A DNA stretch of 64,000 bases from Isoetes taiwanensis (taxonomy: Eukaryota > Streptophyta > Lycopodiopsida > Isoetales > Isoetaceae), in the NCBI GenBank assembly GCA_021234155.1, contig JAJEKV010000167.1, positions 963,943 through 1,027,942 on the forward strand, in the 5' to 3' direction. Below are positions 36,698 to 55,682 of this stretch, in pieces (position 1 is the first letter of the stretch; each line of letters begins with the position of its first letter). The notes under the pieces were generated by a model. That model saw only the letters and a program-made list of their open reading frames with translations. It did no database searches and was not told where the DNA came from. The translations under genes and the position numbers were made by a program.

Positions 36698-36884
36698 ATG
36701 TTCTTGGAGACCAAGAGCAAAGCAATCGACCATGTTCCCGTGAGTACTAACTTGATAGGATCCTCAAGCCTCGAAAAGTGGGAAAATTTTTTCTCACCTT
36801 TGTAGTTATGCTAAGCTAGTAACAATTAAGTGAATTGGAATTTAACAAGATTAAAAAAGAACGAGCCAAAATTTTCCAGTGAGG

Positions 36885-37140
36885 TGGAGTCCCATTGGTC
36901 CAGCCGCGAAAACTAACTTTTTGTTTTGAAGCGAGGCAAGCTATGAGACATCGAGCCAAGAACACCAAAACATGATGAATTTGAGATAAATAATGTGGTA
37001 AGGCTAATTCTAAGGTAGGAATTAGTTAGAATAGCATGTTTTAATTACCTAAAAACCCTAGAATATGAGATCTCATTTCGCTACCGGTCGCAAAAACTAA
37101 ACATTAGTATTGGAACGAGGCTAAGCACGTGGAGACCAAT
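36885..37140. promoter_or_regulatory. Dyad-repeat pair b1/b2, inner element leader
   Basis: Two related blocks of about 65 bases (about 36885-36950 and 37065-37140) share AAAACTAA, a short spacer, then GAAGCGAGGC.AGC or GAACGAGGCTAAGC and a GAGAC ending. The left part of each has a partial reverse complement of the right part (for example GATCTCATTTCGCT against AGGCTAAGCACGTGGAGACC). The same unit recurs twice at 38729-38993. The pair is followed after about 100 bases by a TATA box and ORF1. Confidence 0.6.
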
Positions 37141-37237
37141 GGGTAGAAAAAGTCCGAAATAAGTATAAGTTTTAGATAAATTGGTGCCTTAGCATGTTAA
37201 ACAGAGCAACTTGAGTTTTGACCTAAAATTCCCCAAG

Positions 37238-37247
37238 CTATAAATAG
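37238..37247 (+). promoter_or_regulatory. Internal TATA box before ORF1 (inner)
   Basis: CTATAAATAG, followed 12 bases later by CCCCTCA. The same pair of words occurs before gag at 39179-39195. It lies about 270 bases upstream of the first ATG of ORF1. Confidence 0.55.
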
Positions 37248-37507
37248 ATGTAGAACCCCTCATTTTTTCGGCCCAAGCCCTAGAAATCCGCTTCTCCCCA
37301 ACTTAGGGCCATCTTTCGGACGCTTTTATCCGGATTGACGATCCGTAAAACATGGCCCTGAAACCAAACAGACAAGAAGGGAAGCTGCCGCCAGCGAAAC
37401 CACCAGCCACCGAGACGTAGATCATTCGGAAGATGCTTCGTGGAGAGGCTCGTGAAGAGGGGGTCGCTCGCCTTCGGACGAAGAGCAAGACACCTCCGAT
37501 TTGATCG

Positions 37508-38346
37508 ATGTCTTCAACCGCCAGTGGAGGAGGACGAGGCCACATCTCCAAACCCATGGACGAAGAGACGAGGGAGGTGTATGAGGAGATAGAGAGGGAG
37601 ATCCGCAGCAGGAACAAGGCATATTCGGGGACGCGACCCACCGGAGATCCTCGAAAGCGTGATGAGCAAGTGATGTGTCCGAGCCACCGAGGTAGCGTGC
37701 ATCTTAGAAGATTCATCAGAAATACGGCCGCAGTAAGAGAAGGGAGGACAAAAGAGGAAAAGGAAGGAGGAGGAACAAAAGGCAGCAGAAGAAAAGAAGA
37801 AAGCAAAAGGGAAGTTCGTGGCGGGTATAAGGAGAACAAAGGACCGCCCGCCAAGGAAGAGGACCAAACCCCAACATTATCATCAAGGAGCAAGAACCCC
37901 GATTTAAACCCCCAAACCCTTCCGACGACTCTTTCGGATGGGGACTTCAACCCTAACGCCGGTGGAAGCTCTTCCAAGAACCTGTGCGGACGAAAGCAAG
38001 AAGTACCCAAAATACGAAAGCAACCCCACCAAGACCAAGTACAGAAGCCCCCGAATACCCTAAGATGGGATAGAAAGAACAACCACGACCTGCCCGGAAG
38101 CCTACGCCACCGGCTGTGGTGAAGATTTATGAGAGGAAGATGAGAGAGCACGAGGCCTACATGAAGAAATGGGAGGCCTATAACAAATATTATGAAGAAA
38201 AAACGGGGTTAAGTTCATCGAGGGAGGGCTTACCAACAAAAGCAAAGAAAACCCTAAGGCCGCCACCACCGGCCCAAGGTTCCCAAGCCGCCACCCAGAA
38301 GAAAGCTGATAGGAAGGAGGTGGAGAGAAGAGCGCAGGGAGATTAG
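37508..38346 (+). CDS. Inner element extra ORF1, basic protein
   Basis: A plus frame of 204 codons (37508-38122) passes by a frame change into 38116-38346. The first part is very rich in Lys, Arg, Glu and Gly (RTKEEKEGGGTKGSRRKEES). The second has a Tyr/Lys/Glu helix, KMREHEAYMKKWEAYNKYYE, then a Pro-rich stretch. A homologue with the same helix and the following EIRHFQ motif lies in the outer element (54022-54840 minus). I know no such ORF between LTR and gag in standard chromoviruses. It may be a nucleic-acid-binding or virion-associated accessory protein. Function unknown. Many indels; the true length is uncertain. Confidence 0.6.
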
Positions 38347-38728
38347 ACACTTCCAAGAGCTTCCGTTCTCCTAATCCCCCCGCCCCCTTCGGCCGGTTGC
38401 GCAAGAAGTTATGCAGCCTATAGAACGATTTTAGAGTCACTGCACGAGGCGCCGCCGGCAATGCAAGAGGCGGCTGAGGCAAAGATAGTGCAACATTTTG
38501 AAGATTCAACAACCGCACTATCCACGCTTGCTGGTAACCTTAATGCGACAAGACATGAGTCTTGGCGACCGCATTAAGGGAGAACGCCCTTTAGAAACTT
38601 TTGTTGTAAATAATTAAAAATTTTTGTAATATAGAGCAATTTTGTGTACCTTGATGACATAAACTTGAGTAATTAGAGCAAATTAATAAGTTTTAGCTTT
38701 TATTTCAAGTGAAATAGGACATTTGGGA
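38347..38728 (+). other. ORF1 tail and spacer (inner)
   Basis: Weakly preserved frames continue ORF1 (EIRHFQELPF reading across 38335-38375, then EAPPAMQEAAEAKIVQHFED near 38440-38510). The frame ends near 38580. Non-coding afterwards. Confidence 0.4.
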
Positions 38729-38993
38729 GCCGAGAGACATGATGTTCACACCGTCCGAAAACAAAAAGTTAGATTGAAGCAGGCTAAGTCGCGGAGACCT
38801 ACCAAACTTGACCAAAACAGCCCAAATTGACCAAATAAGGGGTCGATGCGCCTAATTTGATGAGCCCATCACCCTTACACCATTAGTTTACCCAAGTTGA
38901 CATCTTTGATTAAAATGGGACTGATGTCTCATAGCTCGCTACTCGTCAGAAAAACAAAAGTTAGGATTGAAGCGAGGCTAAGCGCGTGAGACC
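38729..38993. promoter_or_regulatory. Dyad-repeat pair b3/b4, inner element
   Basis: Blocks at about 38729-38800 and 38928-38993 repeat the b1/b2 unit (AAAACAAAA.GTTAG.ATTGAAGC, AGGCTAAG, GAGACCT). In b4 the flanks TGTCTCATAGCTCGCT and AGCGAGGCTAAGCGCGTGAGACC form a clear dyad. Spacing between the two copies is about 190-200 bases, as for b1/b2. Confidence 0.65.
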
Positions 38994-39178
38994 TCTTACC
39001 AATTCTTCACCAGACTTGTCAAAGTCACCTTCAACCCATCGCGATAGCACCTTTAAGGTAACCTAGCCTTGTTCAAGCATCTCCTATAGTCCTCAAACTC
39101 CTATTTTGACCTCGATAAGTTAGAATTACCCAATCCTAGGAAATTTTCAAGTCATCCAAAAATTAGGGTTTTCCCTTC

Positions 39179-39189
39179 TCTATAAATAG
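39179..39189 (+). promoter_or_regulatory. Internal TATA box before gag (inner)
   Basis: CTCTATAAATAG followed directly by ACCCCTCACTT. The gag ATG is at 39304, about 115 bases on. Confidence 0.6.
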
Positions 39190-39303
39190 ACCCCTCACTT
39201 CTGGGGATAGCACCCTACAAATCTGTTCCCGCCCTTCTAGCCGATTTCCTAACTCCCCGAGGCTCTTGCAACCATTTGCTTTTACCTTCTTCCGCAATTA
39301 ATC

Positions 39304-42300
39304 AATGGCAACTTCTGATTTCCAGAGATGGTACAGCCACAAAGGGCCATGCCGGCGAGGTCGACGCCGACCAAATCTTCCGTGATCTTCAGAAGGAGGT
39401 AGACGCCCAAGCAACCTTGCACGCCCCAAATTTTATAGTAGAGTCCCCGACCGAGTTTCAAGCTAGGGTAGAACCAGCTTAGTGCAACTCCCCTTTGTAT
39501 AGGATATTTTGTTCCTAGACAGCCCCTCGAAAAGATTAGACGATGTCCCTAACATCGCCAAATACCTCACAAACAAAGCGCACCGCACACTCGAGCCAAT
39601 GGTCCTAATCGGCCAACAGACCAAGTACTTCTTTCAACACCGCCTCGGGCGATCTTTCTCACCCACCGCACCCGAACATCGCGGGGAAACCTCTATTCCC
39701 CCATGGACGGGATCCATTAGCCAGAAAGTTAGAACAACGGCTCCTCACACAGTACGAACAGGAGCAGGAAGGGAAGGGAAGAAGACTCCGGATGAACAGA
39801 ACTGAGGAGGAGGAAGACGATGTTGAGCTCGACCCAGCCAGAGGAGCAGCGGCCAAGCAGAGCGGAGTGGCAAGACTGAAAAGAAGCCGGGCAGACTCGT
39901 GAGTCGCACCACCCCTCGGTTAGGCATCACAAGCCTAGCTCCCATTATAATCGAAGGTGAGGAGTTTCTCGCTCCTACGACATTCAAAACCTCCCTGAAA
40001 GTGTGGAAAGGGAGTACCGACCAAGAGTTGCTGCACCAACTCCGGAAACAGACTTGACGACTTCATCGCCCCGAGGAGAGTCCGACTTCCCTCCAAATAA
40101 GGGAAGCCGACACTTACACGGAGAGTTTACCTCCGACATCCAAGCCTACAAAGAACATCGTGCAGATTATGGAGGCGCATAAGGCCGTAACAAGCTACCG
40201 ACGGAGGAAGAGTTCCTTGCTCTTCGTGAACGATGGGGATCCGCTTATGACCAAACATCCTAACGGGAAAGCTCGGCCAAAGACCTCCCCTGATAGGACA
40301 GCACTTAATTCACCGTGGAGGGCTTCAAAGAACAGCCAAGAGACTAAGGTGGAGCTCACCACGTGGAGGTTGATGATTTCGAAGCGCATTACGAGCTGGA
40401 TACCGAAAGTGGTCGAGGACCCGCCTCGCAAACCATTGTGTCACTACGCCATTACCCGCCACCCGCCGATGGATGGAAGAATAGCTGCTATCCACCGCAA
40501 GTTCACCCCCGTGAGGCGAGGAAGGAGTAGCGCTTGCTGATTGCACTCTCGTGATTCGGCCGCATGCACGGTTACCCCTTAACACCGAAAGTATGCAATC
40601 CTGGTGAAGAGAGCTGGGTAGCACTCGACGCCTTCGACCGCCATACCTTACAAAGCGGCAGTAAGACTGCCGCTGACAGCAGCCTTACACCTCCCACCGC
40701 AGAATAGAAGAATTAGCAAGAGCATTACAGGTGGATCTCCAGCCAATGTCTTAGGAACTTGGGCCATTCAAGTGGGAACAGCCCAAGTGAAAAAGTTCTT
40801 GGAGGATAATCCATCTTACCGCATCAACGAAGTGATTAGCGTGAGTTGCAAGCCCTTGTATTAGTGTAATATAAAATATAAATATAACATTCTCTTTGCA
40901 CTATAAATGTTTTGTTGATATATTTTGTGCCCCCTCAACCATGCCAACAAACATAAATAATGCAAGAAAGCAAGGAAAACTAACCATGTAGATATCAACC
41001 ACTTGTGTATGCAAGCCAGAGGCCCCGAGCAGTGGGGAACGACAACCGCTGGAACTTATGTGGGAATGAGCCCGCCCTGTGCCACGCCCGGCAAGGAACC
41101 CGCTTGAAGAATTTGGACAAATGACCCTTAAGAAGAAATATCGCGAAATGAGGACGGACCTCGAAAGCAGATAAAGGCTTTGCTAGCCGCATGCTGTGAG
41201 CAGTGTTCGGTGGTAACGCCAACCGCCGCAAGCATCACCGGAGAACAAGTAGAGACAAGAAGAGGAGCAAGAGAGGAAGGTCCCCAGCGGACTCCTCCGA
41301 CTCAAGCTCAGATTCGACCGATTCGAGGAAGAAGAAGAGCGTAACCAAGTCCGAAAAGTGCATTTAAAGGCGAGGAACCACCCGGAGGGATCTATAAAGG
41401 GACACAAGAACCTCCGACTACCGTAAGAAAGTAGACTCGCGATTGGGAAATGTTTGAAGGCCAGGAAGCTCGAAAGCAATTCTCAAAGCGAACAAGCGTC
41501 GCATGGAGGCAGAGGCTTGGCTTGACGAGATGAGTTAACACGGGCAATGCCTATGGTATGAAGGATAAGGATAAAGGCGGTGGTGGCAACAAATAACCCG
41601 AAGGAGCAAAGACGATTTGGTGGAAGGGCTATGCCAAGGCTCATGGCTTAAGCAGCAGATGCTTGCGGTGTTCAAGAAGTTTGCTAAAGCCTTCGCCTAT
41701 TATGTTCCAAGAGAGCACAAGTCCAAAGATGATGCAAAGAAATTTACACAAAGTTGCAAAGAAGGCAACAAGTCAAGATTTAAATACACAGAGGAATTTA
41801 TGAGGCTAAGGTCAGATGTGCCAAAGTTAGAGAGAAGCACGCAAGGGAAAGCTACATTGAAGGTCCAATGAGGAGATCCGCAGTTTGTAAGGGCAATAAA
41901 CCCGAGAACAAAGATCGCTTTTTGAGTCCAAGGCAATAAGTTTGCAAGGAACAGGACCTCTAATAGAATGGCAGAGGCAGCAAGATTACCAAGATAAAGG
42001 CAAGGCAGCGTGCAGTTTTAGCCCGAGAACAAATTTCAGACTCATTTAGAGCCCCATATAGTGGCAATCAAGGAAACAAAGCAGGAGAAGAAGTGTATCT
42101 TTCAAAGACAAACAGAAGGGTCAAGCTACTCCAAAGCCGCGAAGCCTTCAGCAGCTATGCCCAAGGAGAAGAGACAGAGTGCATAGAAAAGCGCCTTTGC
42201 TTCGTGTGTTTCCAGCCAAAGCATAGAACAAATGAACCGCATATATGTCATGAGTGCAGCTAGCAGAGTTGGGAGATTGGGACACTTTGATCGACGACGA
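39304..42300 (+). CDS. Inner element gag region, frame-broken
   Basis: Starting at the ATG at 39304 (MATSDF), a shift leads to HAGEVDADQIFRDLQKEVDA, which aligns to the start of the outer gag at about 53112. Further pieces: VPNIAKYLTNKA (39540, also in the outer copy as VPNIAKCTNNKV), AFAYYVPREHK and KYTEEFMRLRSD (41690-41820), the capsid part typical of Retrotrans_gag, and CFQPKHRTNEP near 42210, a degenerate CCHC knuckle. At nearly 3 kb the region is long for a chromovirus gag. No single frame exceeds 130 codons because of frequent indels. Confidence 0.7.
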
Positions 42301-42399
42301 CGGCGCTGCAGGAGGTCCGCGACTACATCGTGGTGAGTGTCATATCTTTGCCGCAATAGATACGCAGCAAGCAGAGAGCCAAGATAAAGTAATTTCCAT

Positions 42400-42690
42400 A
42401 AAGGGGAAAGGCCAAGGCCAAGTCATTTATAGTCCCGATAGATTCGGAAGTAGCCATAACTTTGCATCTCCCGCATGGTTCAAATGTTGAAGTTGAAACC
42501 ATTAAAGTCAAAGCCAAGGCCCGCTGTCTTAGCAAGTGGAGCAAGAAGGCGCATAAAGCCAGTAAAAGAATCAACTTTGACATCGACTTGCCGGGGATTA
42601 AGATCCGCATGGGGGCGAGGTAATGGGCATTGGCAAATATGACTTGATAATAGGTATGGAGTACCTTGGACCAGCAGGGCCATTATTGAT
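42400..42690 (+). CDS. Inner element protease
   Basis: Around 42425-42480 the reading SFIVPDR then FGSSHNFAS corresponds to the retropepsin active site D-S/T-G-S-S-H-N-F with the catalytic Asp just before a small indel. At 42635-42665 KYDLIIGMEYLGP is the conserved C-terminal flap (GMDWL in most Ty3 elements). It cuts the Gag-Pol polyprotein. Frame-broken here. Confidence 0.7.
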
Positions 42691-43059
42691 TGTGGAAAGC
42701 TTTAAGGTGACCTTCCCAACACCACGGCAAGATCATTGAGATAACAGTAAAGAAGTTGTTCCCATCATGCTGTGTATGTCTTCTAAACGGCTGTTCAAGT
42801 GCATCAAGAGTGAGCAGGTAGCATACATCTTCAAGCTTGAGATTAGTGAGCCGGAATTGGAAGGAAGCAAAGAAGACAAGATGCTCAGCAAGTTGCCGAG
42901 GCAAATAGCTAAGTTGATCACGGAGTTCCACGATCTCTTTCCGTGATGAGATCAAGCAGCCCTCCTTATAGGGAGTCGAAAAGCAGATAGCACTGAACCG
43001 AACAAACCGACAAGCAAGGCTCCATATAGAATGACAACGCAGAGTTGTCGGAGCTAAAG

Positions 43060-44270
43060 AAGCGAAGCTAGAGCTGCTCGACCTAGGTTTCATTAGACCT
43101 AGTGTCTGGCCGCTTGGAGCGCCCATTTTTTTGTCAAGAAGAAGGATGGATCTTTGAGAATGTGCATAGACTATAGACAGTTGAATAAGCACACCATTAA
43201 GAACAAGTATGCGCTTCCAAGATCAGACGACTTGATGGATCAGCTTCAAGGAGCAAAGATCTTCTCCAAAATCGACTTAAGGTCGTTATCATCGATACGG
43301 ATAAAGGAGGAGGATATCCACAAGACCGCCTTTTTGACGCCGCATGGGCATTATGAGTTCACAAAGGATGCCCTTCGGCTTATCAAATGCCCCCGCAACG
43401 CTCATGAGGCTCATGAACGATATCTTCTCGGGAGTTCCCGGACACCTTTTTGTGATTGTTTTCTTTGATGACATTTTGGTGTATAGCAGATCCCTTGAAG
43501 AGCACGCGCAACACTTGAGAAGGGTGCTAGAGAAGTTGAAGAGGCACCAGCCCACGCCAAGTTGTCAAAGTGCCACTTCGCTAAACGCAGAAGGTGGAAT
43601 ACCTTGGTCATGTGATCTCGCAGTAGGCATCTCGACGACCCCGCCAAGATTGAAGCAGTTGATTCAAAGGGCGGCCAAGAATGTGCACGAGGTCGAAGTT
43701 TTCTTGGCCTAGCAGGTGGTACTACGTGAAGTTCAGGAAGAACTTTATAAGATAGCAGCCCCCGCTAACGCACCCGACGAGGGGCAGAGAAGGTGAAAGA
43801 TTGGGCAGAGAGCATTGGCACAAGAAAGCCCAAAAGGGGTTTGAATTGTTGAAGGAAGCTTTAACAACAGCCCCGTTATTTAACCCCGCCGGACCCGGAG
43901 AAAGATAAGCTTGTAGCAACAGATGCAGTAAGATAGCTACAAAAAGGCTTATGCAAGAAGAGCGGTGGTAGCCGTGATGATTCCAGGAAGATGAACGACG
44001 CCGAGACGCCGCCACCCAACGCACGATCGAATTGCTTGGGGTTGTCGTGGCATTAAGAATATGGAGGCACTATCTCTTGGGAAGGAAGTTCCAATTGGAT
44101 ACCGACCATCGAGCCTCCAATATGTATTCACGCAACCACACCTCAACTGAGGGCCGGAGATGGATGGAGTTCCTCAAGAATATGACTTTGATATAGTCTA
44201 CAAGCGGGGAAGCTCAATGTGGTAGCAGATGCGCTTTCAAGGCATCCCCCGACAACTAGAGTGCATTGTA
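43060..44270 (+). CDS. Inner element reverse transcriptase and RNase H
   Basis: [22 protein letters not shown] (43150-43210), FSKIDLRS, then [20 protein letters not shown] (43370-43430) and [12 protein letters not shown] (43450-43490). FFDD replaces the more common YVDD or YIDD. The RNase H core follows ([10 protein letters not shown] counterpart near 43900, and [13 protein letters not shown] at 44212-44240). The product copies element RNA into DNA and degrades the template. Frames change at about 43275, 43355, 43560 and beyond. Confidence 0.88.
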
Positions 44271-45120
44271 ATGTAATTTCGACGCCTCCACGAATTTTGG
44301 TAAGAAGATTGAGGAGTCCTTGCCAACGGATGTGGATTTCGTGGAAGTATGGGCAAGCCTCTAAGGAGGCTAGAACAGATAAAGAGCGGGAGGCCTTCAA
44401 GCATTATAAGAAGGAAGGCAACCTGTTATACCATAAGAACAAGTTGTCGCGTGCACGGAATCATCGTGTAAGGAAGTTGATCCTCCACGACACGACAAAC
44501 AGCCCCAATAGTCGGGCCATGCGGATTCATGAAAAACATATTTCAAAAGCGCAGCAGCCTATTATTGGCCGTGAATGAAGAAGCAAATAGCTCGCTACAT
44601 CAAGGAATGTCAACTATGCCGCCAGACGGCGGAGCAACTTCAATTCTGTGGGCATTAGAGCCATTAGCGGTGCCAAACGCTTAAGTGGGAGGTAATCAGC
44701 ATGGATTTCATCACAGACTCCCAAGAATGTTAAAGAGGCAAGGATGCCTTGATGGTAGTGGTCTAATAAGTTGTCAAAGATGGCACATTTGTGCCTTGCG
44801 TGACCACGATACAAATTTATGGATACAAAGAAAGCTCTTCACCAAAGAGATCTTCGTGCTTCATGGCATGCCAAGGGAGATTATCTCCCATGTGGATCCG
44901 GTTCATGAGTGCCTTTTGGCAAGACCTCTTTTGACGATTCGCACTAAGCTATCCATGAGCACGGCGTATCATCCTCAGACGGATGGCCGACGGAAAGGAC
45001 CAACAGGATCTTAGAAGACATGCTACTTAAACTATGTCCTGAATAAGCAAAGTATGTGGGAAGAATTCATTCACTTGGTGGAGTTTGCATACAATAGCAC
45101 CAAGCAGGAATCGCCCCAAA
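44271..45120 (+). CDS. Inner element integrase
   Basis: The zinc finger is VRKLILHDTTNSPN, then a KKQIARYIKEC-like stretch. The core starts SMDFIT near 44700 and reads LSMSTAYHPQTDGRRKGPT near 44945-45010, where the canonical form is DGQTER. The catalytic Glu is obscured by an indel. It continues with FIHLVEFAYNS near 45070. Confidence 0.82.
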
Positions 45121-45715
45121 TGTCGCCATTTATGATCAATTATGGCTATCAAGTGTTTAACTCCGCACACTTGGCACAACCCCGTCAAAAGTAGAAGTTT
45201 CGCAGCAGATGTTACCGATATGCAGCAGCTAGTGGAAGAAGTTCGAGGTTATCCGCTAGCAAAGAAGAAGTCGTCGAAGAGCATCGCCGACAAGCATCGA
45301 AACAAATGAGAGTTCAAAGTTGGAGATGATGTATGGCTCAAGATAAAGGTGAAGCAGCGGCTCGATTGGCAATTGCAAGAAGTTTTGCTCCAAGGTGGGC
45401 TGGACCCTTCGTAATAATCAAGAGAGTAGGTAATCAATCCTACAAATTGGATTTGCCAAAGACACCTAAAGATTCATAAGGTCTTCCACGGAGTTTGTTG
45501 AAGAAGCATACTCCAAATCCGCACGAAGTCTTGGACACTCCAACGCTGTTGGAAATGACTGAGGAGCAGCTGGAAATAGTTCCAGAAATGATTCTTGATA
45601 AAGCTTTTAAGAAGACAAGGAGGTCGGAATTCCTCCAAAGATTTGGTCAAGTGGAAACACTTAATGCTGGAAGAAGACGCCACGGGTACTTAAGAAAGAT
45701 TTAGTAAAGCAAAGT
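45121..45715 (+). CDS. Inner element integrase C-terminus and chromodomain
   Basis: SPQMSPFMINYGYQ opens the segment. VWLKIKVKQ and PRWAGPFVIIKRVGNQSYKL are the GPY/F-type module. LLKKHTPNPHEVLDTPTLLE leads into the chromodomain at 45590-45700 (SEFLQRFGQVET, a frame-shifted form of the outer element's EFLQYLVKWKHL). Chromodomain spacing and sequence mirror the outer element. Confidence 0.82.
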
Positions 45716-46646
45716 ACCCACAATTTATGGAGCAATGGGATCTGCAAGGTCATCTCCTCAAGAAATCGGCCGTGCATGTCGATTTGTGTAGGTTAATTCT
45801 TGTATAGATTAATCTCACGCGATGCAACCCATGCTTGGTATGAGTCGACAAGCGTTGTTACGCATGATGAGACCACTACGGTGATCTCTAGGCGCGGGTG
45901 TAATGTCAATGTAGGCATGACCGCAAGCTTCCTTTGGGCATGAAAGTGGAAGGTAGATTAGAAAGTCTACTGTCCTCTACCGGAAGTAAATGACCTCGAG
46001 AGAAAAGAGGTCATTAAGGAATGCATTGATAGGGAAAGCACCTTTAGCCCCATATATGCTTTGATAGGAGGAATCCATCCTTCACGCTCCCCACGCCGAG
46101 AAGGATATCCTCCACGCCGGGCAACTAGAGGTGTAGGCATGAGCGCATATAGGCATATAGGGCGCCTCCTCCACGCCATTATGGAAGATTCATCCTCTTC
46201 CTACTGAGATTAGCCATGCATTCATGTAGATAGGTGGGGTGGTCACCATATAACCAAAATTTATTAAATAATTAAAACGGTACTAACGTAGTGTCGACTG
46301 CAGCCAAAGAGAGCCCCGGAGGGCAAGGAGGTCGAAAGACAAGACTTGCAACACAAGTTTTGTTGGAATGTGTTGCAAGGAATGAAGAGTACCTCGACAA
46401 TAATCATAGATATGAAATGTTGAAATTTTGTCTAACTTAACATAGTGAATAACTTGTTAATGGTGTTATGAATTGATAAGTATTCCATAATATAATAACG
46501 TAATAATGTTCTAAAAGTAATTACCTTAGAGTAATCGCGGATAAATGTATAAAGATTATATTGTAGGTATCACGCTGATTGCAAAGCTGCGGTGTTAGGA
46601 AGATCCCAAGGTGGAGACCCACCATGCCGCCGGACGCGATCATTTC
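45716..46646 (+). other. Inner element 3' noncoding region
   Basis: About 930 bases between the chromodomain and the polypurine tract, without an ORF. It contains clusters of 'ccacgcc' and 'ggcatatagg' repeats near 46090-46180. Confidence 0.6.
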
Positions 46647-46658
46647 AAGGTGGGGAGA
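46647..46658 (+). other. Polypurine tract
   Basis: AAGGTGGGGAGA lies one base before the 3' LTR (TGTGACG at 46660) and would prime plus-strand DNA synthesis. Confidence 0.8.
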
Positions 46659-46659
46659 A

Positions 46660-48223
46660 TGTGACGTTCCAAAGACAAAGATAATGCCCCAGACGTACAT
46701 TGTAACCGCCACGCCACGCAGACACGCCACCTCGATTGACGGTACGCATAACGATAGCTGTGTAAGTAGCCCTAGGGGCAACTTACTAGGAGTATTCATA
46801 TATTATTAATGTGCACATGTGCACATTAATGAGGGCACACCTTTCCATGTTGGCATATTTTGCCACCTAGCCACTAAAGGCAAGTGGGGCCTTTCCAATT
46901 ATCCCACATGCCAAATTGGGTAATTGGAAACCCTAGCCTAAACCCCCATGTCTATTTAGGGTAGGAAACCCTAGCTTGCTAGTTTTCGCCCTTAGGGTTT
47001 TAGAGCTCGCTTTGGCTGCCCCAGAGCCAAAACCGCCTCCCGTGACACGCCTGCCAAGCCGAATTGCGCCATCGGTTTCGATCAGCCTGCCAGATGGTTG
47101 AACTCAGTCAGGAGGAGCCACTCAAGGATCAGAGTTTGGTCAATTTAATAGCTTAAACCGCCTTCTAGTCATAGAATCAGAGGGTTTAGACTATTAAATT
47201 GCCCATAGTAGTTATCTAGATCTTAGATCGGACACTAACTAAAGAACCTAACTCGTGATTGGATCTAGTTCTTTAGTTCTTCCGCGTGATATATTTGGAT
47301 GATGTATTTCTGTGGAACTCCCTTGTATTGGGAAGGGGGTAGAGGCCCTAAAGTCGGTAGTTGATGCTTCCTAGAGTAGCCTCTCTAGCACACCGTAGAT
47401 CTCGCCTGCGGTACAAGAGCCACACCGGTTGTGGGTGAAGGGGCCTGACCGGGCTAAGAAGGAGGTTCATGTCCCCGACTCTTTGAACGGTCCCCCGGTG
47501 TAAAGCCCGGGACCATTGTGACTAGGTCTAATGGCTTACCACGAAAAGCGGTAAGGCATGGGCTCGACACCGCGGAAGTGGTGTACACTTTCTCCGTTGG
47601 TTCGGATTTAACACGGGCAAAGGGCCCTCTAGTCACCTTTGAGTTAGCATGTAGATCTCTCGAGGGAGTGATCCCTACCGCCCCATCGAACTGGGAGGAT
47701 GAGGCCCGTGAATAGCCCCTTCTGGCCATGTCCGTCCGGCTGGCTACTGGGCCAGTCCCAACACTTTTCAGCCTACTCGCAAAGTGTGCAATGTGTGAGG
47801 GGCGGATGGAGTGGACAACCCTATGCCATGTTCTTATGCCAGCCAAATCCATTGCCATGAATTCTGGCCTCGCAACGAACTCCTCGAGACCCAAGCCGCC
47901 GTACCATCCTTTTGAGTCTCGAGCCTTGGGTAGGATCCCCTATGTGATGTGTGCCGATCTTTGTCTATGCAGATATGAGGGGACCATCCTTCGAGATGGT
48001 CATGGATGTTGATGTATGTGCTAACGACATGTATGTTTACGCCCGCAGCCTAGGTAGGCCCCGAGGGAGACGGGTAGAATGACACCTTCACTCTCCCAAT
48101 CGGAGACTCAAGCACGCGCAGGATATGTGGAGGGCCCTCAGACGCGATGGAGCCGTGTGGGGAAGAACTCCTCGCTTGTATACCTGTGAGTGCACCGTGA
48201 TACCAGTAGTAGGGGACGCCACA
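46660..48223 (+). repeat. Inner element 3' LTR
   Basis: It begins TGTGACGTTCC and ends GGGGACGCCACA, collinear with 35119-36683. The same 26-bp palindrome is at 46805-46830. The differences from the 5' LTR are mostly changed homopolymer lengths and clustered short indels. Confidence 0.94.
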
Positions 48224-49470
48224 AGGCAGCAAAGGACTCTTGTTGTCGAGGATGCCTTGAAAGCCGATCCGCTACCACATTGAGCTTCCCGCTTATAAAT
48301 TATGACAAAATCAGATTCTTCGAGGAACTCCATCCACCTTCGCCGCCTCGTGTTGAGATGTGGTTTGCGTGAACACTTATTGAGGCTCAGATGATTCGCG
48401 GTCCAGCTGGAACTTCCTTCCCAACCGTGTAGTACCTCCAAATTCTTAATGCTCATAACCCAAGCAACTCTTGGTCATGAGTCGGGTGCGCTGCCAAGGC
48501 CGCTCATCTTTTTGAGAGTCATAAGCCACTACCCGCCTCCTCAGATCAATATCGCACCCGTGGGTAATTTTACTTGCATCCGTCGCCACAAGTTTGTCCT
48601 TCTCGGAATCTGGCAGGGTTAGGACGGGGGCGATTGTCAAAGCTTCCTTCAACAACTCGAATCCTGCTTGGGCTTTCTTCTGCCAATGATCTGCCCAATC
48701 CTTTACTTTTTTCGCCCTCGTCAAATCCGTTAGTGGGGCCGCTATTTTTGCAAAGTTCTTCACGAACTTCCTATAATACCCTGCTAGGCCGAAAAAGCTT
48801 CTGACCTCGTGGATGTTCTTCGGCGCCGGCCAATGTATGACTGCTTCGATCTTGGCACGATCCGTCGAAATCCCCTCCGCTGAGATCACGTGCCCCAGAT
48901 ATTCTACCCTCTCTGTTGCAAAGTGGCACTTCGACAACTTAGCGTACAACTGGTGCTTTCTTATCTTCTCGAGCACTTTCCTTAGGTATTGTACGTGTTC
49001 TTCCAGAGATTTGCTGTACACCAGAATATCATCAAAGAATACTATGACAAAAGTATCCAAAAACTCTCTGAAGATGTCGTTCATAAGTCTCATGAACGTT
49101 GCTGGGGCGTTTGACAAGCCAAACGGCATTACGGTGAACTCGTAATGCCCATACCTGGTTCTGAATGCTGTTTTGTGGACGTCTTCTTCCTTAATCCTGA
49201 TCTGATGGTATCCCGACCTTAGGTCTATCTTGGAGAAACCTTCGCGCCTTGGAGTTGATCTATCAGGTCGTCCGATCTCGGGAGTGCATACTTATTCTTG
49301 ATGGTGTGCTTATTTAGCTGCCTGTAATCTATGCACATCCTCAAGCTGCCATCCTTCTTCTTCACAAAAAGGATGGGTGCCCCAAATGGTGAGACGCTAG
49401 GTCTAATGAACCCTAGGTCAAGCAACTCCTGCAATTGCTTCTTCAACTCGGCTAGCTCTTGCGTCGCCAT
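48224..49470 (-). CDS. Outer element RT and RNase H
   Basis: Minus frames 49470-49225 and 49129-48446 together cover [93 protein letters not shown] and, for RNase [15 protein letters not shown]. The last part (48456-48224) continues in another frame to ADALKASS at the insertion junction. The 228-codon uninterrupted stretch is the best preserved coding part of either element. There is a two-base loss near 49240 (GAKVSPR where GAKxFSKID is expected). Confidence 0.93.
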
Positions 49471-49679
49471 CCCCGTATGGCGCTTTGCTCGCTTGGCCAG
49501 ACTGGGTTCGAAAGTGCTATCTCACACTCGACTCCCTCAGAAGGAGGAATCGCTTTGATCTCGCCTGGGAAGAGATCATGGAACTCCTTTACTAACTTAG
49601 CTACCTGTTTTGGTAATTTGCCAAGCACCTTATCTTCCTTGCTTTCTTCTTACTCGGGCTCTTCGATCTGAAGCTTGAA

Positions 49680-50110
49680 GACATAGGCTACCTGCTCGCT
49701 CTTTATGCACTTGAGCAGCCGCTACTAGACATACAATCGTATGATAGGAACAACTTCCTTACCCGCAATTTCTATGATTTTGCCGTTGAGGCCATCAAGG
49801 TCACTTTTACGGTTCCCACAAATGATGATGGCCTTTGCCGGAGCGAGGTACTCCATGCCGGCGATCAAATCATACTTCCCGATGTTCATTACTTTTTGCT
49901 CCCCATTTGATGTTGATCCCCGGCAAATCGATGTCGAATTTATCCTCTTTGCTGCCGGCTGGTGCCTTCACGCCCGCTTTTGCTAACACCACGGATCTCG
50001 CTTTGACTTCAATGGCTTGAGCTTCAACATCTCAACCATTCTTGGAGACGCAGTTGTGGGTGCTCCCCGTATCTATCGACTATGAAAAACTTGGCCTTGG
50101 CCTTCCCTAC
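49680..50110 (-). CDS. Outer element protease
   Basis: Minus reading near 50045-50095 gives KFFIVD then, after a two-base slip, TGSTHNCVSKNG, the retropepsin active site. NIGKYDLIAGMEYLAPAKAI follows at about 49890-49835. It lies between the gag zinc knuckle and the RT. The active-site residues are present if the slip is a sequencing error. Confidence 0.75.
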
Positions 50111-50269
50111 CGTGGAGATTACCCGATACTCATTTTTCTGCTTGGTCTGAATCTATGGTCGCAAAGATATGACACTCACCCTCCGGGAATGAAGTCAAGG
50201 CTTCCCCGCCGCCGCCGTCGAGGGAGTCTCCCATCCACCCAACTCGCTAATGTCGATTCATGACAAAAG

Positions 50270-53112
50270 GGCGCTTTGATGTTCTATGGCCTGGTTGGAA
50301 GCACTCGGGCGTAGCCGCTTTCAATGCACTCCTGCCTCTTCTCCTTAGGCATTGCTTATAAAAGGATCGTGACCGCTTTTGAGTAGTTTGACCCTTCCGC
50401 TGCGGCTTATCCTTGAAGGATACCCGCTTTCCCCGGGCCGCTTCCCATAATTGCCATCAGATGGAGCTTTTGCTGGTCCTGGACTAGCTGCCCTAGGGCT
50501 ATAACTTCCCGATGCTTTGCCCTTATCCCGTAGTAAAATTTGAGCCTGTCCGCTTCTAAGGGCCGGATCCTTGCAGCCGACCGCCGATTCCGCTTTCGAT
50601 ACGGTTCGAGGGTTGATTGCTCTTACCAGCCTTCCTTATCTCATCGCTTAATCCCTCGATGTACGCTTTCCACTACATGGCGTTTCACCGCCTTTCGCAC
50701 ATAAAGCCTCGCCATGAACTCTTCCGTATTTCTGCACGGACTTGTTGCCCTGCTGTAGCCGATAGAATTGCTGCATCATGTGGCATTTGTGCTCCCTTGG
50801 CACATAGTGGCGTTTGAATGCCTTTGAAAATTTCTTGAATCTGCAGCTATCCCTCGCTCAATTCATGGGCCTTAGCATAGCCCTTCCACCATATCCCTCG
50901 GTTGCTTCCTTTAAGATTGGCTATAGCCACTGGGCCTTTGTCTTTGTCCTTCATTCCAGATGCATTCCCATATTCCCTCATCTCGCCCGCCCAGGCCTCG
51001 GCCTCCATGCCCCGACCGACCGTCACCCGAGAATTGTTCGAGCTTTTTCTTGCCTTCCACACATTGCTCAAGCAGTCTACTTTCTTCTAGTAGTCGGGAG
51101 GTCCTTGTGTCCCTATGTTCCGCCGCCTCACGGTCCCAGACTGCTCCACCTCTTCCCTGGATCAAGAGTCCTAATCCCGAAGCTTGTGTCGAGGATTCAA
51201 AGGCTAGGGGACCTCCTTCTCTTGCTCTTCTTCTTATCCTTTCCCCGCTTTTCGAGGTGGTGCTTGGCAAACCGGACATTGTGGTCTGGGCCCAACCGCT
51301 TGGCCAGGCTTAATAAGGCCTTTTATCTCTTGAAGATCGATCTCATCAAGGACATCTCCTCTTGGGAGTCATGGGACCAATTCTTCGTGATTGAAGGTTT
51401 CTTGCTAGGTGTTCGCGGCGGTGTCTCTTCATCTCTATGGATTCGCCAGTCTTGTTCAGCTGTTCCTGGACCTCTAGCTGCATACACAAGTAGGCCATAC
51501 CTTACGGTTAGCTTTGTTTGTTTTATTGCATTTATGTGTTTGTTGATATAGTTGTGAAACGTAATACATCAACAAAACATTTAAAATGCCAAACAAAATG
51601 TATTTATATATATATATCGAAAACTCAGTTACAATGCTTCCGGGATCAAGAGTCTAACTATTCTTGGAATATCAATCTCCGGTAGGATGGGTTATCCTGA
51701 AGGAACTTCTTAACTTGGGTCGTTCCTACTGAGCGTCCCAAGTTCGGCCTTGTAAGGCTGTCACCAAGTCTTCCACTCTGCGGTCCGAAGTATAGGCCGC
51801 GGTCGCTGCTAATCTTCCTTGCCGGCGGTAGGGGTACCGCGGAAGTCGAAGATATCCAAGCACACCGCTTTCTTGACTAGGATGACGCGGATCAATTGAT
51901 GGGATCAACCAGCATGCCTACCAAATCCCCGAGAGTGCGATGAGCATGAATACTCCTTCTTCGCCTCGATGAACTTGTAAGTGATGACCGCCATTCTCCG
52001 CCCAATAGCAGAGGAAGGTAGTACCTTAGCGACTCGTCCCGACTTGTCGCCGTTGATTCTTCGCCGCACGCACCGCTCTATGTCTTCCCGCATATTCATC
52101 GACGGGAGTTTCCATCAGGTCTCAGAGTCCCTTATTGTTGAGGCGATTCTCGTCAGGTCTATCTCGCCTCTTCTCCGACACCTGTGGGGAACCGGGTGTC
52201 GTAAGAACTTGGCATCAAAATATTTGTGGTCTTGCACGGATCCCCATCCGTTCTTGGATGGCGAAAAATTTTCTTCTGGACGCAGATCCCGAGTTGCCAT
52301 CATTTTGCCTGGGATGCTACTATATGCCCCGATATCCAAGTCGAATTCCGGTGTAGGTGTCGCTTCTCTTTACGCGGATTGGGAAGTCGGAAGCCTCCCA
52401 TCGATGAACTCATCGAGGTCGGGTTGTTGCCGCAGTAAGATGCAAAGAACTCATCTCGCCTCAGACTCCCCGCTCTGCATTCGAGAGGTTTTGATGTCAC
52501 CCAGAGCAAGTCCTCGACCGCTGATGATGATGGGGGCTAGGCTTGTGATACCTAGCCCGAAAGGGAGCAATCCCGATGGTCTCGGCAGTCCTCGCCGAAC
52601 GATCGGATCTCCCGCCTCGCTTGTCGCCGCCTCGTCCGGCCTAACTCGACGTAGTCTCGGGCTCTTCCGAAGTCGAGCTCTTTCGGCTCTTCTTTGCTCC
52701 GGCTTGGTACCGGGAAGAGGAGCGACCGACCTTGACAAGAGGCTAGGGGGGTCCACATCCATGGCCGGATGGAGGGTTCCCCATTGGGTTCGGTGGCATG
52801 GTGAGAGAGAAAGATGGCTATGACAGCGGTATAGGAGAAATACTTCGCTCTATTTACTATCATGACCATGTAATCTGGCAGTCTAGCAACCTTGTTGTTC
52901 GTGCATTTGGCAATGTTGGGGACCTCACCAAGGTTTTTTGGAGGGACCATTAGGGAACAAAATATCCTGCATAAGGGGAAGTCGTTAAGGATGGTCCTAC
53001 CTAGCTTGGAATTCGGCCTCCATATAGGATGGGGTTGCCTCAGAAGGTGGCTTGGATGTCTATCTCCTTTCTCGAAAACTTCAAAAATGGCATTGATATC
53101 AGCTTTAGCCAC
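50270..53112 (-). CDS. Outer element gag region, frame-broken
   Basis: It starts near 53112 (VAKADINAIFEVFEKGD) in a 186-codon frame (53112-52552) that contains VPNIAKCTNNKVARLPDYMV, shared with the inner gag. Near 50640-50830 it reads HYVPREHKCHMMQQFYRLQQ and KYGEEFMARLYVRKAVKRHV, a capsid helix set. Near 50280-50330 CFQPGHRTSKRPF marks the zinc knuckle. The middle (50900-52550) keeps long open frames only in antisense. The plus-strand ORFs of 245 and 280 codons here are shadows of this region. Confidence 0.72.
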
Positions 53113-53266
53113 ATGAGCACCGGTAACCGCACCATCGCCTGAAAATCATAGCTGCCATTGATCTTGATTAAACGGGCTAACAAACAGCTCTTTGAAGCCT
53201 AAGGGAGTTGGAAAATCGCCTAAAAGCTGGGAGCAAACCTGTAAGATGCTAAGTGAGATATGGGGG
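53113..53266 (-). other. Outer gag 5' untranslated part
   Basis: Between the TATA box and the gag frame, counted on the minus strand; no other content. Confidence 0.4.
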
Positions 53267-53278
53267 CCTATTTATAGG
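53267..53278 (-). promoter_or_regulatory. Internal TATA box before gag (outer)
   Basis: CCTATAAATAGG on the minus strand, itself palindromic, about 155 bases before the start of the gag frame. This is the same place and word as in the inner element. Confidence 0.6.
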
Positions 53279-53469
53279 AAAAAGGGGAAGACCCTAATTT
53301 TTGAAAAACTTAGAAAATTTTTGGGTTGGGCAAATCTCACCTATTTTGAGGTCAAAATGATGATTTGAAAGCTAATTTGAGGGTTTGAACATGAGTAAAA
53401 CATCTAATGAACCTATTGCAACAAATTTGAGGTCAATTGGAGGTAGCATGAAAGAGATAATGCTGAAAA

Positions 53470-53537
53470 TACTCACGGTGTGCACTAGAAGGCTGACCTA
53501 AAATTTAGGTCGAGGTCCTGGCGCATACCGTAAGTAA
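53470..53537. promoter_or_regulatory. Dyad copy c1 (outer)
   Basis: A roughly 66-base imperfect palindrome. Outer arms are TACTCACGGTGTGC and GCGCATACCGTAAGTA; the centre is the perfect 17-base dyad GACCTAAAATTTAGGTC. Confidence 0.8.
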
Positions 53538-53672
53538 GTTGGCCCTATTTGGTCAAAACTTATCTAAACAGGATGAACTAAGGGTCAAAACATGATGGTC
53601 TCACCGAGATATGCAGGATTGAACCCTTACTTGGCCAGTTTGGAGATGTCTAGGACACTTTTTGATGTGAAA

Positions 53673-53737
53673 TACTCACACACTTACTGGGCCTGACCTA
53701 AATTTTAGGTCAATGCTCTGGCGCATACCGTGAGTAA
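53673..53737. promoter_or_regulatory. Dyad copy c2 (outer)
   Basis: Same unit as c1, 200 bases further. Centre GACCTAAATTTTAGGTC, then GCTCTGGCGCATACCGTGAG. The left arm has a short alteration. Confidence 0.8.
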
Positions 53738-54021
53738 CTTCTCACTTCTTGACCATAAGATTTCCATTTTAACTAAAACAAAAGGCAATTATTGCTATTC
53801 AACCCGATTAACAATATTTATGCACTTAGACTTTTCTCAAAATAACTTTTTATTTACAAAATTTGTTATTTACAAGATTTATCGTTCTCCTTTAATATAA
53901 CTAGCTAATTGCATGTCCTTGATCATTAGGGTCACTCTCTTGGCATGCATGGTGCATGCCCTCGAGTCTTCAAAATGCTGCGACCAGCGCTCCACCTGCT
54001 TCTTGCAAGGCTAGCAAGATC
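53738..54021 (-). other. Spacer between ORF1 and the gag promoter block (outer)
   Basis: AT-rich to about 53900, then the tail of ORF1. No separate gene. Confidence 0.4.
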
Positions 54022-54840
54022 TCACCGGACCCTCATGTTCGGTGGGCTAATTCTGTAGACGACCTCCTTGGACGCAGTATGGCTTAATGGTGCTCGGGGG
54101 ATGAGAAGGCCGTAACTTCTCTGAAAATGCCGGATCTCTCGGACTGCTTGCAACAGTCTTGATCCGGGCTTCCTTGCTACTGGCTGCTTGGGCGGAATGG
54201 GTTTCTCTCGAGGTGGCTTGAGAGCATTCTTCTTTTGAGGGCCGCCCTCCTTCACATAAGTTACTTTATTGGCTCGGTAGTAGGAGTTATAGGCCTCCCA
54301 CTTCTTCAAGTACTCTTTGTAGGCCTTTAATTTCTTTCCGGTAGACCCTCGATGGTCACCACGAAGACCTGTGGTAGGTCAGGTCGACTTCTTGGGATCC
54401 TTTTTGTCCTTCTCCCATGTTGGGTAGGGTGGGGTATATGTACCCTGTTGCTCTCGGCCGGTTTTGAGGAGCTCCCCCCTCTTGGTCTCCCTCTCGGGAA
54501 GGGCTGGTAATTCACATCGAGTCGCCGATGATGGGGGCTGGTCTGATTGCCGCTCCTTGATGATGATCTTGGTCGTTGGGGTCTTCCTGAGTTTCCTCTT
54601 TGGCTCCTCCTTGCCCCTTCCCCTGAGTTTCTTCTCCCTCCCGCCTCCTGTTCCCCTCGTTTTTCTTTTTCTCGGCCTTTTCCTCCTCTTGTGTTGTGAC
54701 TTCGCCTCCTGCATTTGGATCCAGGCTTCGAGTTCTTCTTCCAGGGTCGGCTCGGGGGTGGCCTCCTTCTGTTCATCTGGTGCCTTGGCAACCGCTCTAT
54801 TCTCGCCTTGTTCTTGTTCTGTATCTCCTGCCACTGCCAA
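54022..54840 (-). CDS. Outer element extra ORF1, basic protein
   Basis: The minus frame 54840-54379 encodes EEELEAWIQMQEAKSQHKRR, then a block of Lys and Arg (KRKTRGTGGGREKKLRGRGK), then Pro/Thr-rich sequence. After a frame change, 54309-54022 gives MKKWEAYNSYYRANK, a KKNALKPPREKPIPPKQP stretch and LLQAVREIRHFQRSYG. It is the counterpart of 37508-38346 in the inner element. The likeness of sequence and place in two separate elements argues that it is a true gene of this lineage. Function unknown. Confidence 0.65.
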
Positions 54841-55105
54841 ACACTCTTTGAGTCTCCTCGTCTATCGAGCCTTCAGATTCTACTTCTGTTTCTCCATCTA
54901 ACTCCTGGTTGATGAGGTCAACCAGTTCTTCTAGTGATCCTTGCTCGGATCCTTCCTCCTGTAGCTCGTCCGAAGTGCTCTCCTCAGCTGATGGAAGTTG
55001 GCCTCCTCGAGCGAGAAGCTGCTCTCAAAGTAGCTGCTGTATCCGCCTCTTATCTTGGGTGCTAGGATGTTCAAACAGAAAGTCTACAAATGAGAGGGGT
55101 TTGGG
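54841..55105 (-). other. ORF1 N-terminal part (outer)
   Basis: Minus frames continue upstream with Glu, Ser and Leu-rich acidic sequence (EEGSEQGSLEELVDLINQE-like, near 54950-54900). The start codon of ORF1 is probably near 55060, but frame breaks prevent a firm choice. Confidence 0.35.
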
Positions 55106-55116
55106 TCTATTTATAG
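55106..55116 (-). promoter_or_regulatory. Internal TATA box before ORF1 (outer)
   Basis: CTATAAATAGA on the minus strand, followed by CCCAAACCCCTC. It lies about 105 bases downstream of dyad copy c3 (in minus direction). Confidence 0.6.
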
Positions 55117-55217
55117 TTTGGCAAATTTTAGGTCAAATTCTAAGTTGCTCATTTTCATGCGTGAAGGCACCTGTTAACTTAAAACATGTACTTTCTTTAG
55201 AGTTTCCTAAGTAAAAT

Positions 55218-55283
55218 TACTCATGGTGTGCGCTAGAGGGCTGATCTAATATTTAGATAAAGGCTCTGGCGCATACCATGAGC
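55218..55283. promoter_or_regulatory. Dyad copy c3 (outer)
   Basis: TACTCATGGTGTGCGC...GGCGCATACCATGAGCA arms around GATCTAATATTTAGAT. Same unit as c1 and c2. Confidence 0.8.
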
Positions 55284-55430
55284 ATTTTTGCATTTTAGAC
55301 TAAATTATATAACTTTTAGACATATTCCTAGGGGTGTGATATACAATTCTAGCTAAACCTTACCTTAAAACTCGATCTAGCATATTATCTTGTTCAAATT
55401 CTTCAAGTTTCAAGGTGAATGTGGTAGGGT

Positions 55431-55494
55431 TACTCATGGTGCTACCTGGGGCCGACCTTAAAATTTAGATCGATGCTCGCACATACGATGAGCA
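55431..55494. promoter_or_regulatory. Dyad copy c4 (outer)
   Basis: TACTCATGGTGC...GCACATACGATGAGCA arms around GACCTTAAAATTTAGATC. Slightly shortened unit, about 210 bases from c3. Confidence 0.75.
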
Positions 55495-55682
55495 ATTTTC
55501 CACACTTGGTCAAAATTTAGTTCAACTTTTAGTTTGGTTTTCAATTCTTCTAACTCAGAACTAGATTAGCATAAACTACAAAAATGAGAAAAAAAATTTC
55601 CCACTTTTTCGAGGTCCGAGAATTCTACTAAGTTAGTACTCATCGGGAGCATGGCTGCTTTGCTCTTGGTCTCCAAGAACTT

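What the first reader, a model, noticed from the sequence alone, without database searches (positions are those of the whole stretch)
36885..55494. Two chromoviruses share a double internal-promoter layout with four dyad repeats each
In the outer element four copies of a roughly 65-bp imperfect palindrome lie in two pairs (53470-53537 and 53673-53737; 55218-55283 and 55431-55494). Each pair is followed downstream by a TATAAATAG box (53267-53278; 55106-55116) and then by an ORF. The inner element has the same plan with a different dyad sequence: pairs at 36885-37140 and 38729-38993, TATA boxes at 37238 and 39179. In each element the first block precedes the extra ORF1 and the second precedes gag. 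The repeated arrangement in two separate copies implies selection for it. My inference is two internal, dyad-regulated promoters, a plan I do not know from Ty3 elements.
Basis: partly seen in the sequence, partly recalled or inferred. Interest (0 to 1): 0.85.

Follow-up and report, generated by a model that had tools for sequence, protein, structure and literature searches.

The report
Histone-carrying plant retrotransposons with internal promoters
Two nested jumping elements in what is probably a quillwort genome carry, ahead of their usual genes, an extra gene that resembles histone H3, and each gene is preceded by what looks like its own switch, a pair of palindromes plus a TATA box; a mobile element that makes its own chromatin protein under its own promoters would be unusual.

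Summary
The observation largely holds. The four outer dyads lie as stated. In 30 copies per block they score as dyads in 27-30 of 30, spaced 203 or 213 nt, and TATAAATA follows at a fixed distance in 59 of 60. The window's inner dyads do not exceed shuffles; some other inner copies show them. The "different dyad" claim is half right: half-sites read CTCAY-NNN-NN-GCGCC with a family-specific triplet (GGT, AGC, ACG) shared by both arms. The two elements are relatives (pol 71-77% identical), not independent cases.

Outer copies show purifying selection (pN/pS 0.33-0.36; wrong frames 0.98-1.22). The genome holds at least 103 copies.

Best reading: two internal, dyad-controlled Pol II promoters, one for the H3-like gene, one for gag. 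In 82 of 94 copies with the TATA box, the first ATG after it lies where the ORF begins. Promoter activity and protein function are inferred, not shown.

The parts
31960..33040 (-). 3' LTR (partial) of the outer element
   Evidence: blastn to inner LTR and to 55700-55998
55700..55998 (-). 5' LTR end of the outer element
   Evidence: 86.5% to 31963-32260
55431..55494 (-). outer dyad 1, block 1
   Evidence: score >=26 in 27 of 30 copies; not above shuffles in the window copy itself
55218..55283 (-). outer dyad 2, block 1
   Evidence: score 36 vs shuffle maximum 27; 30 of 30 copies
55108..55115 (-). TATA box of block 1 (TATAAATA on minus strand)
   Evidence: 30 of 30 copies; no transversion in 14 core columns of 29 copies
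53882..55005 (-). outer ORF1, histone H3-like gene; degenerate in this copy, N-terminus not readable; start placed only from the usual 110-nt TATA-to-ATG distance
   Evidence: tblastn with L037 and L062 proteins; uninterrupted 402-aa copy in L037
53673..53737 (-). outer dyad 3, block 2
   Evidence: 28 of 30 copies; not above shuffles in the window copy
53470..53537 (-). outer dyad 4, block 2
   Evidence: score 32 vs shuffle maximum 27; 30 of 30 copies
53269..53276 (-). TATA box of block 2
   Evidence: 29 of 30 copies
50250..53158 (-). outer ORF2 / gag region, broken frames; ATG at 53158
   Evidence: N-terminal part pN/pS 0.34 among copies
48446..49129 (-). outer reverse transcriptase piece
   Evidence: Pfam RVT_1 1.4e-20
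33602..34333 (-). outer integrase C-terminus with chromodomain
   Evidence: Pfam SH3_Tf2-1 4.3e-22, Chromo 3.6e-7
35123..36683 (+). 5' LTR of the inner element
   Evidence: 86.7% to 46663-48223
46663..48223 (+). 3' LTR of the inner element
36885..36960 (+). inner dyad 1, block 1
   Evidence: homologous half-sites in L087 and L079; 7 of 30 copies score >=26
37071..37142 (+). inner dyad 2, block 1
   Evidence: 2 of 30 copies score >=26; left arm differs between copies
37239..37246 (+). TATA box of inner block 1
   Evidence: 30 of 30 copies
37352..38590 (+). inner ORF1, histone H3-like gene, frames broken
   Evidence: tblastn; Pfam Histone 2.1e-29 for the homologous piece of L062
38729..38800 (+). 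inner dyad 3, block 2 (window copy only)
   Evidence: repeat relation to 38923-38993
38923..38993 (+). inner dyad 4, block 2 (window copy only); AGC-core half-site at 38928 with 2 mismatches
39181..39188 (+). TATA box of inner block 2 (window copy only)
39305..41900 (+). inner ORF2 / gag region, broken frames; weak Retrotrans_gag hit at 41575-41868, below the curated cut-off
43338..44193 (+). inner reverse transcriptase and RNase H pieces
   Evidence: Pfam RVT_1 4.1e-14, RT_RNaseH 1.1e-9

Best explanation
These are two related families of a chromovirus lineage (Ty3/Gypsy with an integrase chromodomain) that carries a histone H3-like gene (ORF1) between the primer-binding site and gag. Each of the two internal blocks is a Pol II promoter module. 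A pair of about 66-bp dyads, roughly 190-216 bp apart, is bound by a dimeric DNA-binding factor, and a TATA box 133-137 bp (ORF1) or about 228 bp (outer gag block) past the second dyad centre fixes the start. One module makes an mRNA for the H3-like protein, the other an mRNA for the gag-side ORF. This lets a downstream ORF be translated although a 400-codon ORF lies in front of it in any LTR-started RNA. Shown: anatomy, presence in the outer family, conservation, spacing, a family-specific half-site core shared by both arms, H3 homology, purifying selection on outer ORF1. Inferred: transcription starts, the bound factor and its identity, that the H3-like protein enters nucleosomes, and that it changes how host chromatin treats the element.
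For: Layout and presence. TATA at its usual distance in 89 of 90 copies, while TATAAATA occurs only 116 times on one strand in the 296 kb of these loci. First ATG >=28 nt after TATA lies at 105-125 nt in 22 of 30, 30 of 30, 25 of 29 and 5 of 5 copies that have the TATA. Transversions per pair and site in the outer family: dyads 0.014-0.031, spacers 0.037-0.045, upstream flanks 0.060-0.072, fourfold sites of ORF1 0.15. Half-sites that fit the scan carry the core GGT in 120 of 136 (outer), AGC in 26 of 28 (inner) and ACG in 12 of 12 (L091-L093, L095), in both arms. Four of six divergent loci keep two dyads 213-216 nt apart. ORF1: Pfam Histone 2.8e-20 and 2.1e-29, H3 chains in PDB 1.7e-20, pN/pS 0.33-0.36 against 0.98-1.22 in shifted frames.
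Against: No RNA data, so no start site is mapped. In block 1 the dyads (0.912, 0.917 identity) are no better kept than the spacer (0.907) or the stretch up to the TATA (0.921); only transversions are fewer, with overlapping bootstrap intervals. The inner family shows clear dyads in few copies, and only 28 of 120 possible inner half-sites fit the scan. L094 keeps TATA and ATG without dyads; L096 has other palindromes and no TATAAATA at the usual place. Copies were found by similarity to the blocks, which favours conserved blocks; spacers inside the same queries are the fair control. A loose first count gave pN/pS 0.64-0.80 among inner copies, where broken frames disturb it. The LTR promoter may also operate.
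Confidence: 0.66

Rival explanations
1. The dyads act as RNA hairpins in the genomic RNA (packaging, dimerisation or translation control), not as DNA sites.
For: Both strands of six well-preserved dyads (two in the window, two each in L091 and L093) fold far better than shuffles, z -5.4 to -8.7, 0 of 200 shuffles in each of 12 folds. Fixed non-Watson-Crick positions lie at similar places in different families.
Against: At positions that are Watson-Crick in most outer copies, G-U cells (83) are no commoner than A-C cells (79), so nothing favours wobble pairs. Over all mismatches A-C on the sense strand exceeds G-U (345 vs 144; copies are not independent). Dyads sit at a fixed distance upstream of a TATA box in both blocks.
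Confidence: 0.14
2. The dyads are insulator or enhancer sites for a host factor, as the Su(Hw) sites in the gypsy leader (recalled), and the TATA boxes are not used.
For: Paired inverted sites in the leader with steady spacing.
Against: A second arrangement of the same kind lies before gag, and the TATA-to-first-ATG geometry is kept in both blocks.
Confidence: 0.1
3. The arrangement is passive: dyads and TATA are inherited from a recent ancestor and the captured histone gene is a passenger.
For: Inner copies are 96-99% alike upstream of the TATA outside the dyads; the two elements are related; in block 1 dyad and spacer identity are about equal.
Against: pN/pS 0.33-0.36 with shifted-frame controls near 1. 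ORF1 identity goes down to 56% with the layout kept. Both arms changed together between families.
Confidence: 0.05
4. The gag-side ORF is reached by splicing or read-through from one LTR transcript; the blocks are leader sequence only.
For: The window's inner copy has GTGAGTACTAAC just after the PBS.
Against: That donor-like GTGAGT is seen in 1 of 29 inner and 0 of 22 outer copies in which the site could be read.
Confidence: 0.05

Closest known systems
Sirevirus (Ty1/copia) repeated motifs, PMC2829016 (passages read)
   Same: Palindromic repeated boxes upstream of a TATA box and again before an extra gene (env); the authors say their boxes support an internal promoter hypothesis for env
   Different: Ty1/copia; boxes in the LTR as well as before env; CGG-CCG boxes rather than pairs of 66-bp dyads; they could not conclusively identify an internal promoter; no histone gene in the passages read
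hAT DNA transposons that captured histone H3 in fungi, PMC6710886 (abstract, outline and passages read)
   Same: A transposon family carrying histone H3 sequence in tens to hundreds of copies
   Different: DNA transposon; in Pseudocercospora fijiensis the captured copies are inactivated by RIP, in Pyrenophora tritici-repentis many are potentially active; here an LTR element with a diverged H3, long linker and purifying selection
Orchid Gypsy elements with a 2-ODD m6A demethylase ORF, PMC9289625 (passages and section 12 read)
   Same: Gypsy elements with an additional host-like ORF kept over several subfamilies
   Different: Different domain. The screen covered 121 angiosperm genomes, so no lycophyte; section 12 names no histone domain among the extra domains (its supplementary chart was not seen)
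Chromoviruses of non-seed plants, PMC2864245 (12 passages read)
   Same: Ty3/Gypsy elements with a chromodomain, surveyed also in lycophytes
   Different: No histone H3 ORF or paired dyads in the passages read
Foamy virus internal promoter (recalled, no call)
   Same: A retroelement with a second, internal promoter upstream of an accessory gene
   Different: Position in env; the accessory gene is a DNA-binding transactivator, not a histone

Membership tests
Chromovirus (Ty3/Gypsy with chromodomain) | LTRs flanking gag-pol with RT and RNase H before integrase | tested here: met
   LTR pairs; RVT_1, RT_RNaseH and integrase C-terminal pieces in that order
Chromovirus (Ty3/Gypsy with chromodomain) | Chromodomain at the integrase C-terminus | tested here: met
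   Pfam Chromo 3.6e-7, above its cut-off, outer element; the inner piece 45480-45701 gave no Pfam hit
Chromovirus (Ty3/Gypsy with chromodomain) | Placement in a named clade by RT phylogeny | not tested
   no tree was built
Histone H3 family (ORF1) | H3 histone fold | tested here: met
   Pfam Histone 2.8e-20 and 2.1e-29; H3 chains in PDB; by sequence only, no structure was predicted
Histone H3 family (ORF1) | ARTKQTARKS tail | tested here: inconclusive
   ARTKQTARK in L037 and several copies of both families, residue 10 is not S; L091 and L092 read ...ARV and ...TRV
Histone H3 family (ORF1) | About 136 aa without a long linker | tested here: not met
   402 aa with roughly 300 residues before the fold, so H3-like, not canonical H3
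Sirevirus-type regulatory repeats | Palindromic boxes in the LTR upstream of TATA of a Ty1/copia element | tested here: not met
   the element has a chromodomain; a half-site scan of the window found no outer-type match in the LTRs

The most novel reading that the evidence does not exclude
The element makes its own histone H3 variant from a dedicated, dyad-controlled promoter. The variant is built into nucleosomes, where its H3-like tail is either read by the element's own integrase chromodomain, steering new insertions, or blocks host silencing marks on element copies. The dyad-binding factor shifts specificity with the family, since the half-site core changes in step in both arms within one family.
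Probability: 0.22. Interest if true: 0.95.

Novelty: new variant of a known kind. Interest (0 to 1): 0.8.

Why it matters
Chromoviruses are defined by a domain that reads chromatin. A lineage that also supplies an H3-like protein would put both sides of that contact in one mobile element and make testable how LTR elements steer or escape heterochromatin. The paired promoters also suggest how an LTR element can express two consecutive long ORFs without splicing. For users of this assembly, patchy errors in young repeats may distort LTR dating and ORF counts.

Tried and rejected
Leader splicing: a donor-like string after the PBS is not conserved. RNA hairpin reading: strong folds but no wobble preference; kept as a rival. 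Searches used loci that were partly in the wrong orientation (43 of 90, found); family conservation and ORF conclusions rest and later. A first pN/pS count used loose tblastn pieces and gave 0.38-0.41 outer x outer, 0.64-0.80 inner x inner and 0.46-0.63 outer x inner; replace it with stricter pieces, which left 45 of 90 loci, all outer, some of them the same element fetched from both blocks. The inner family's ORF1 constraint is therefore not shown by counts. Relatives outside this genome: residues 1-300 of ORF1 gave 0 of 2847 candidates at E <= 0.001. The full ORF1 gave 578 proteins at E <= 1e-5, the best 120 listed; the three I read (P0001-P0003) hold repeated H3 folds and no such linker. 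A gag-side piece gave 0 of 548. RT clade placement was not done.

Print: ten searches listed no title or abstract start that reports a histone gene in an LTR retrotransposon. I opened five papers, in passages. The library lacks most subscription journals and preprints.
Full report
Setting. The window is part of an unnamed 1.658-Gb genome in 1110 contigs. Size and contig count agree with Isoetes taiwanensis (1.66 Gb; 204 scaffolds plus 909 contigs; PMC8566536, passages read), but this identity is inferred. The inner element (plus strand) has LTRs at 35123-36683 and 46663-48223. It lies inside the outer element (minus strand, LTR pieces 31960-33040 and 55700-55998). Their pol regions are 71-77% identical and their LTRs about 76%. 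Both are chromoviruses of one lineage: RT and RNase H pieces were found in both and a chromodomain in the outer one.

The observation. In the window copy two of the four dyads exceed all shuffles and the rest do not. In 30 copies per block, taken by similarity to the blocks and including the window's, dyads score at or above 26 in 28, 30, 27 and 30 of 30; 7.6% of 900 background windows reach that score. Median centre spacing is 203 (block 2) and 213 (block 1). TATAAATA follows in 29 of 30 and 30 of 30. Of 40 scored block-2 places, 20 have a scored block-1 place upstream at 1745-1910 nt, a lower bound because only 40 of 560 and 40 of 585 candidates were scored.

Inner family. Copies are 96-99% identical upstream of the TATA but 84-88% inside the dyads, and 88-89% in leader and ORF1 start. 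Printed rows (16 of 30) show 10-20 nt stretches, mainly left arms, that differ at random beside identical DNA. The inner LTR pair shows a similar pattern: 17% differing columns, a variance/mean of 3.2 in 20-nt windows, and an identical run of 115 nt where random placement gave at most 85. A short outer LTR piece is also somewhat clustered (variance/mean 2.1) but without an excess run. The published assembly of the presumed species used Nanopore reads polished with short reads. I infer uncorrected errors in young repeats; real hypervariability is not excluded. Clear inner dyads exist in some copies, for instance the first dyad of L087 and L079. Median inner spacing is 188.

One dyad type, three cores. 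Half-sites fit CTCAY-NNN-NN-GCGCC. The triplet is GGT in the outer family (56 of 66 and 64 of 70 fitting half-sites), AGC in the inner family (26 of 28) and ACG in L091-L093 and L095 (12 of 12), in left and right arms alike. Half-sites that did not fit the scan are left out: about 120 per block set were possible. Symmetry has thus been kept through changes on both arms. Among six loci upstream of divergent ORF1 copies (56-61% identity where one search lists the whole ORF), four have two dyads 213-216 nt apart with the TATA 133-134 nt after the second centre. L094 lacks dyads; L096 has other palindromes and no TATAAATA at the usual place. L091-L093 are one promoter family (87-100%), so they count as one case; that search scored 40 of 2464 candidates, all at 86% or more, and added 40 short opposite-strand matches that mirror the dyads.

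Constraint. In the outer family transversions per pair and site are 0.014-0.031 in dyads, 0.037-0.045 in spacers, 0.060-0.072 in upstream flanks, 0 and 0.034 in the two TATA cores, and 0.15 at fourfold sites of ORF1 (0.083 in its fold). Intervals for dyad and spacer overlap in block 1, and in block 1 overall identity does not separate dyads (0.912, 0.917) from spacer (0.907); in block 2 it does (0.935, 0.948 against 0.914).

ORF1 is a histone H3-like gene. L037 holds an uninterrupted 402-aa ORF that begins MARTKQTARK and ends in an H3 fold (Pfam 2.8e-20; PDB H3 chains 1.7e-20). The inner family has the same (L062 piece, Pfam 2.1e-29). Against a plant H3, 47 of 101 and 59 of 124 aligned positions are identical. 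R83, C110, H113, R116, V117 and D123 are kept in both; R63, L65 and F84 differ in both, and T118 and R129 in L037 (their roles are recalled). About 300 residues lie before the fold and residues 1-300 found no relative in the protein collection. The genome holds at least 103 scored places for the outer type (27,980 first-look candidates; main rows 56-100% identity; 31 of 103 list no internal stop, by my count, many rows covering only part) and 150 scored places for the inner fold (10,778 candidates; 73-100%). pN/pS among outer copies is 0.33 (fold) and 0.36 (linker); the same codons read in shifted frames give 0.98-1.22. Two gag-side pieces give 0.34 and 0.48.

Promoter logic. The first ATG at least 28 nt after the TATA lies at 105-125 nt in 22 of 30 (outer ORF1), 30 of 30 (inner ORF1), 25 of 29 (outer gag side) and 5 of 5 divergent loci with a TATA, which is where the ORFs begin. 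Control windows of 82 nt without any ATG make up 0.15, 0.07, 0.43 and 0.70 in the same sets, so the control is informative for the first two sets and weak for the last two. A 400-codon ORF in front of gag would hinder gag translation from an LTR-started RNA; two promoters solve that. This last step is inference.

DNA or RNA. Both strands of the dyads fold strongly. At positions mostly Watson-Crick, G-U (83 cells) and A-C (79 cells) are about equal, so I see no sign of selection on RNA pairing. Most copies are neutral after insertion, which weakens this test.

Known relatives. Palindromic repeats upstream of TATA and before an extra gene are reported for Sireviruses. Histone H3 capture by transposons is reported for fungal hAT elements. 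Extra host-like ORFs in Gypsy elements are reported for orchids. The main text of the Isoetes genome paper does not hold the word histone. I found no report of a histone gene in an LTR element in the listings of ten searches of the held library. I therefore rate it a new variant of a known kind, with a possible function that would be new.

Noticed in passing
window 35266-35291 and 46805-46830: A perfect 26-nt palindrome (ATTAATGTGCACATGTGCACATTAAT) in both inner LTRs.
   Followed up: no
L091 and L092, start of ORF1: The histone-like tail reads ARTKQTARV and ARTKQTTRV, so K9 is missing in two divergent loci while K4 stays; assembly error is possible.
   Followed up: partly
window 35123-36683 vs 46663-48223: LTR differences of the inner element are clustered, so its apparent age from LTR identity is doubtful.
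   Followed up: yes
window 36706-36723 and 55657-55674: An 18-mer GGAGACCAAGAGCAAAGC just after the PBS is kept in 24 of 30 outer and 29 of 30 inner copies.
   Followed up: partly
window 331-430: A 100-nt stretch 70% alike to the inner LTR, probably another related LTR fragment.
   Followed up: no
window 9433-11169 and 11877-14369, minus strand: Two long ORFs that look like plant PPR proteins, the second with a DYW-type end (from the translation; family name recalled).
   Followed up: no
window 28381-29574, plus strand: A 397-aa ORF with a charged N-terminal half and an unidentified C-terminal part.
   Followed up: no
L026:2089-3246: Two pieces of the gag-side ORF have no Pfam hit, and the longer one no database relative.
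   Followed up: partly
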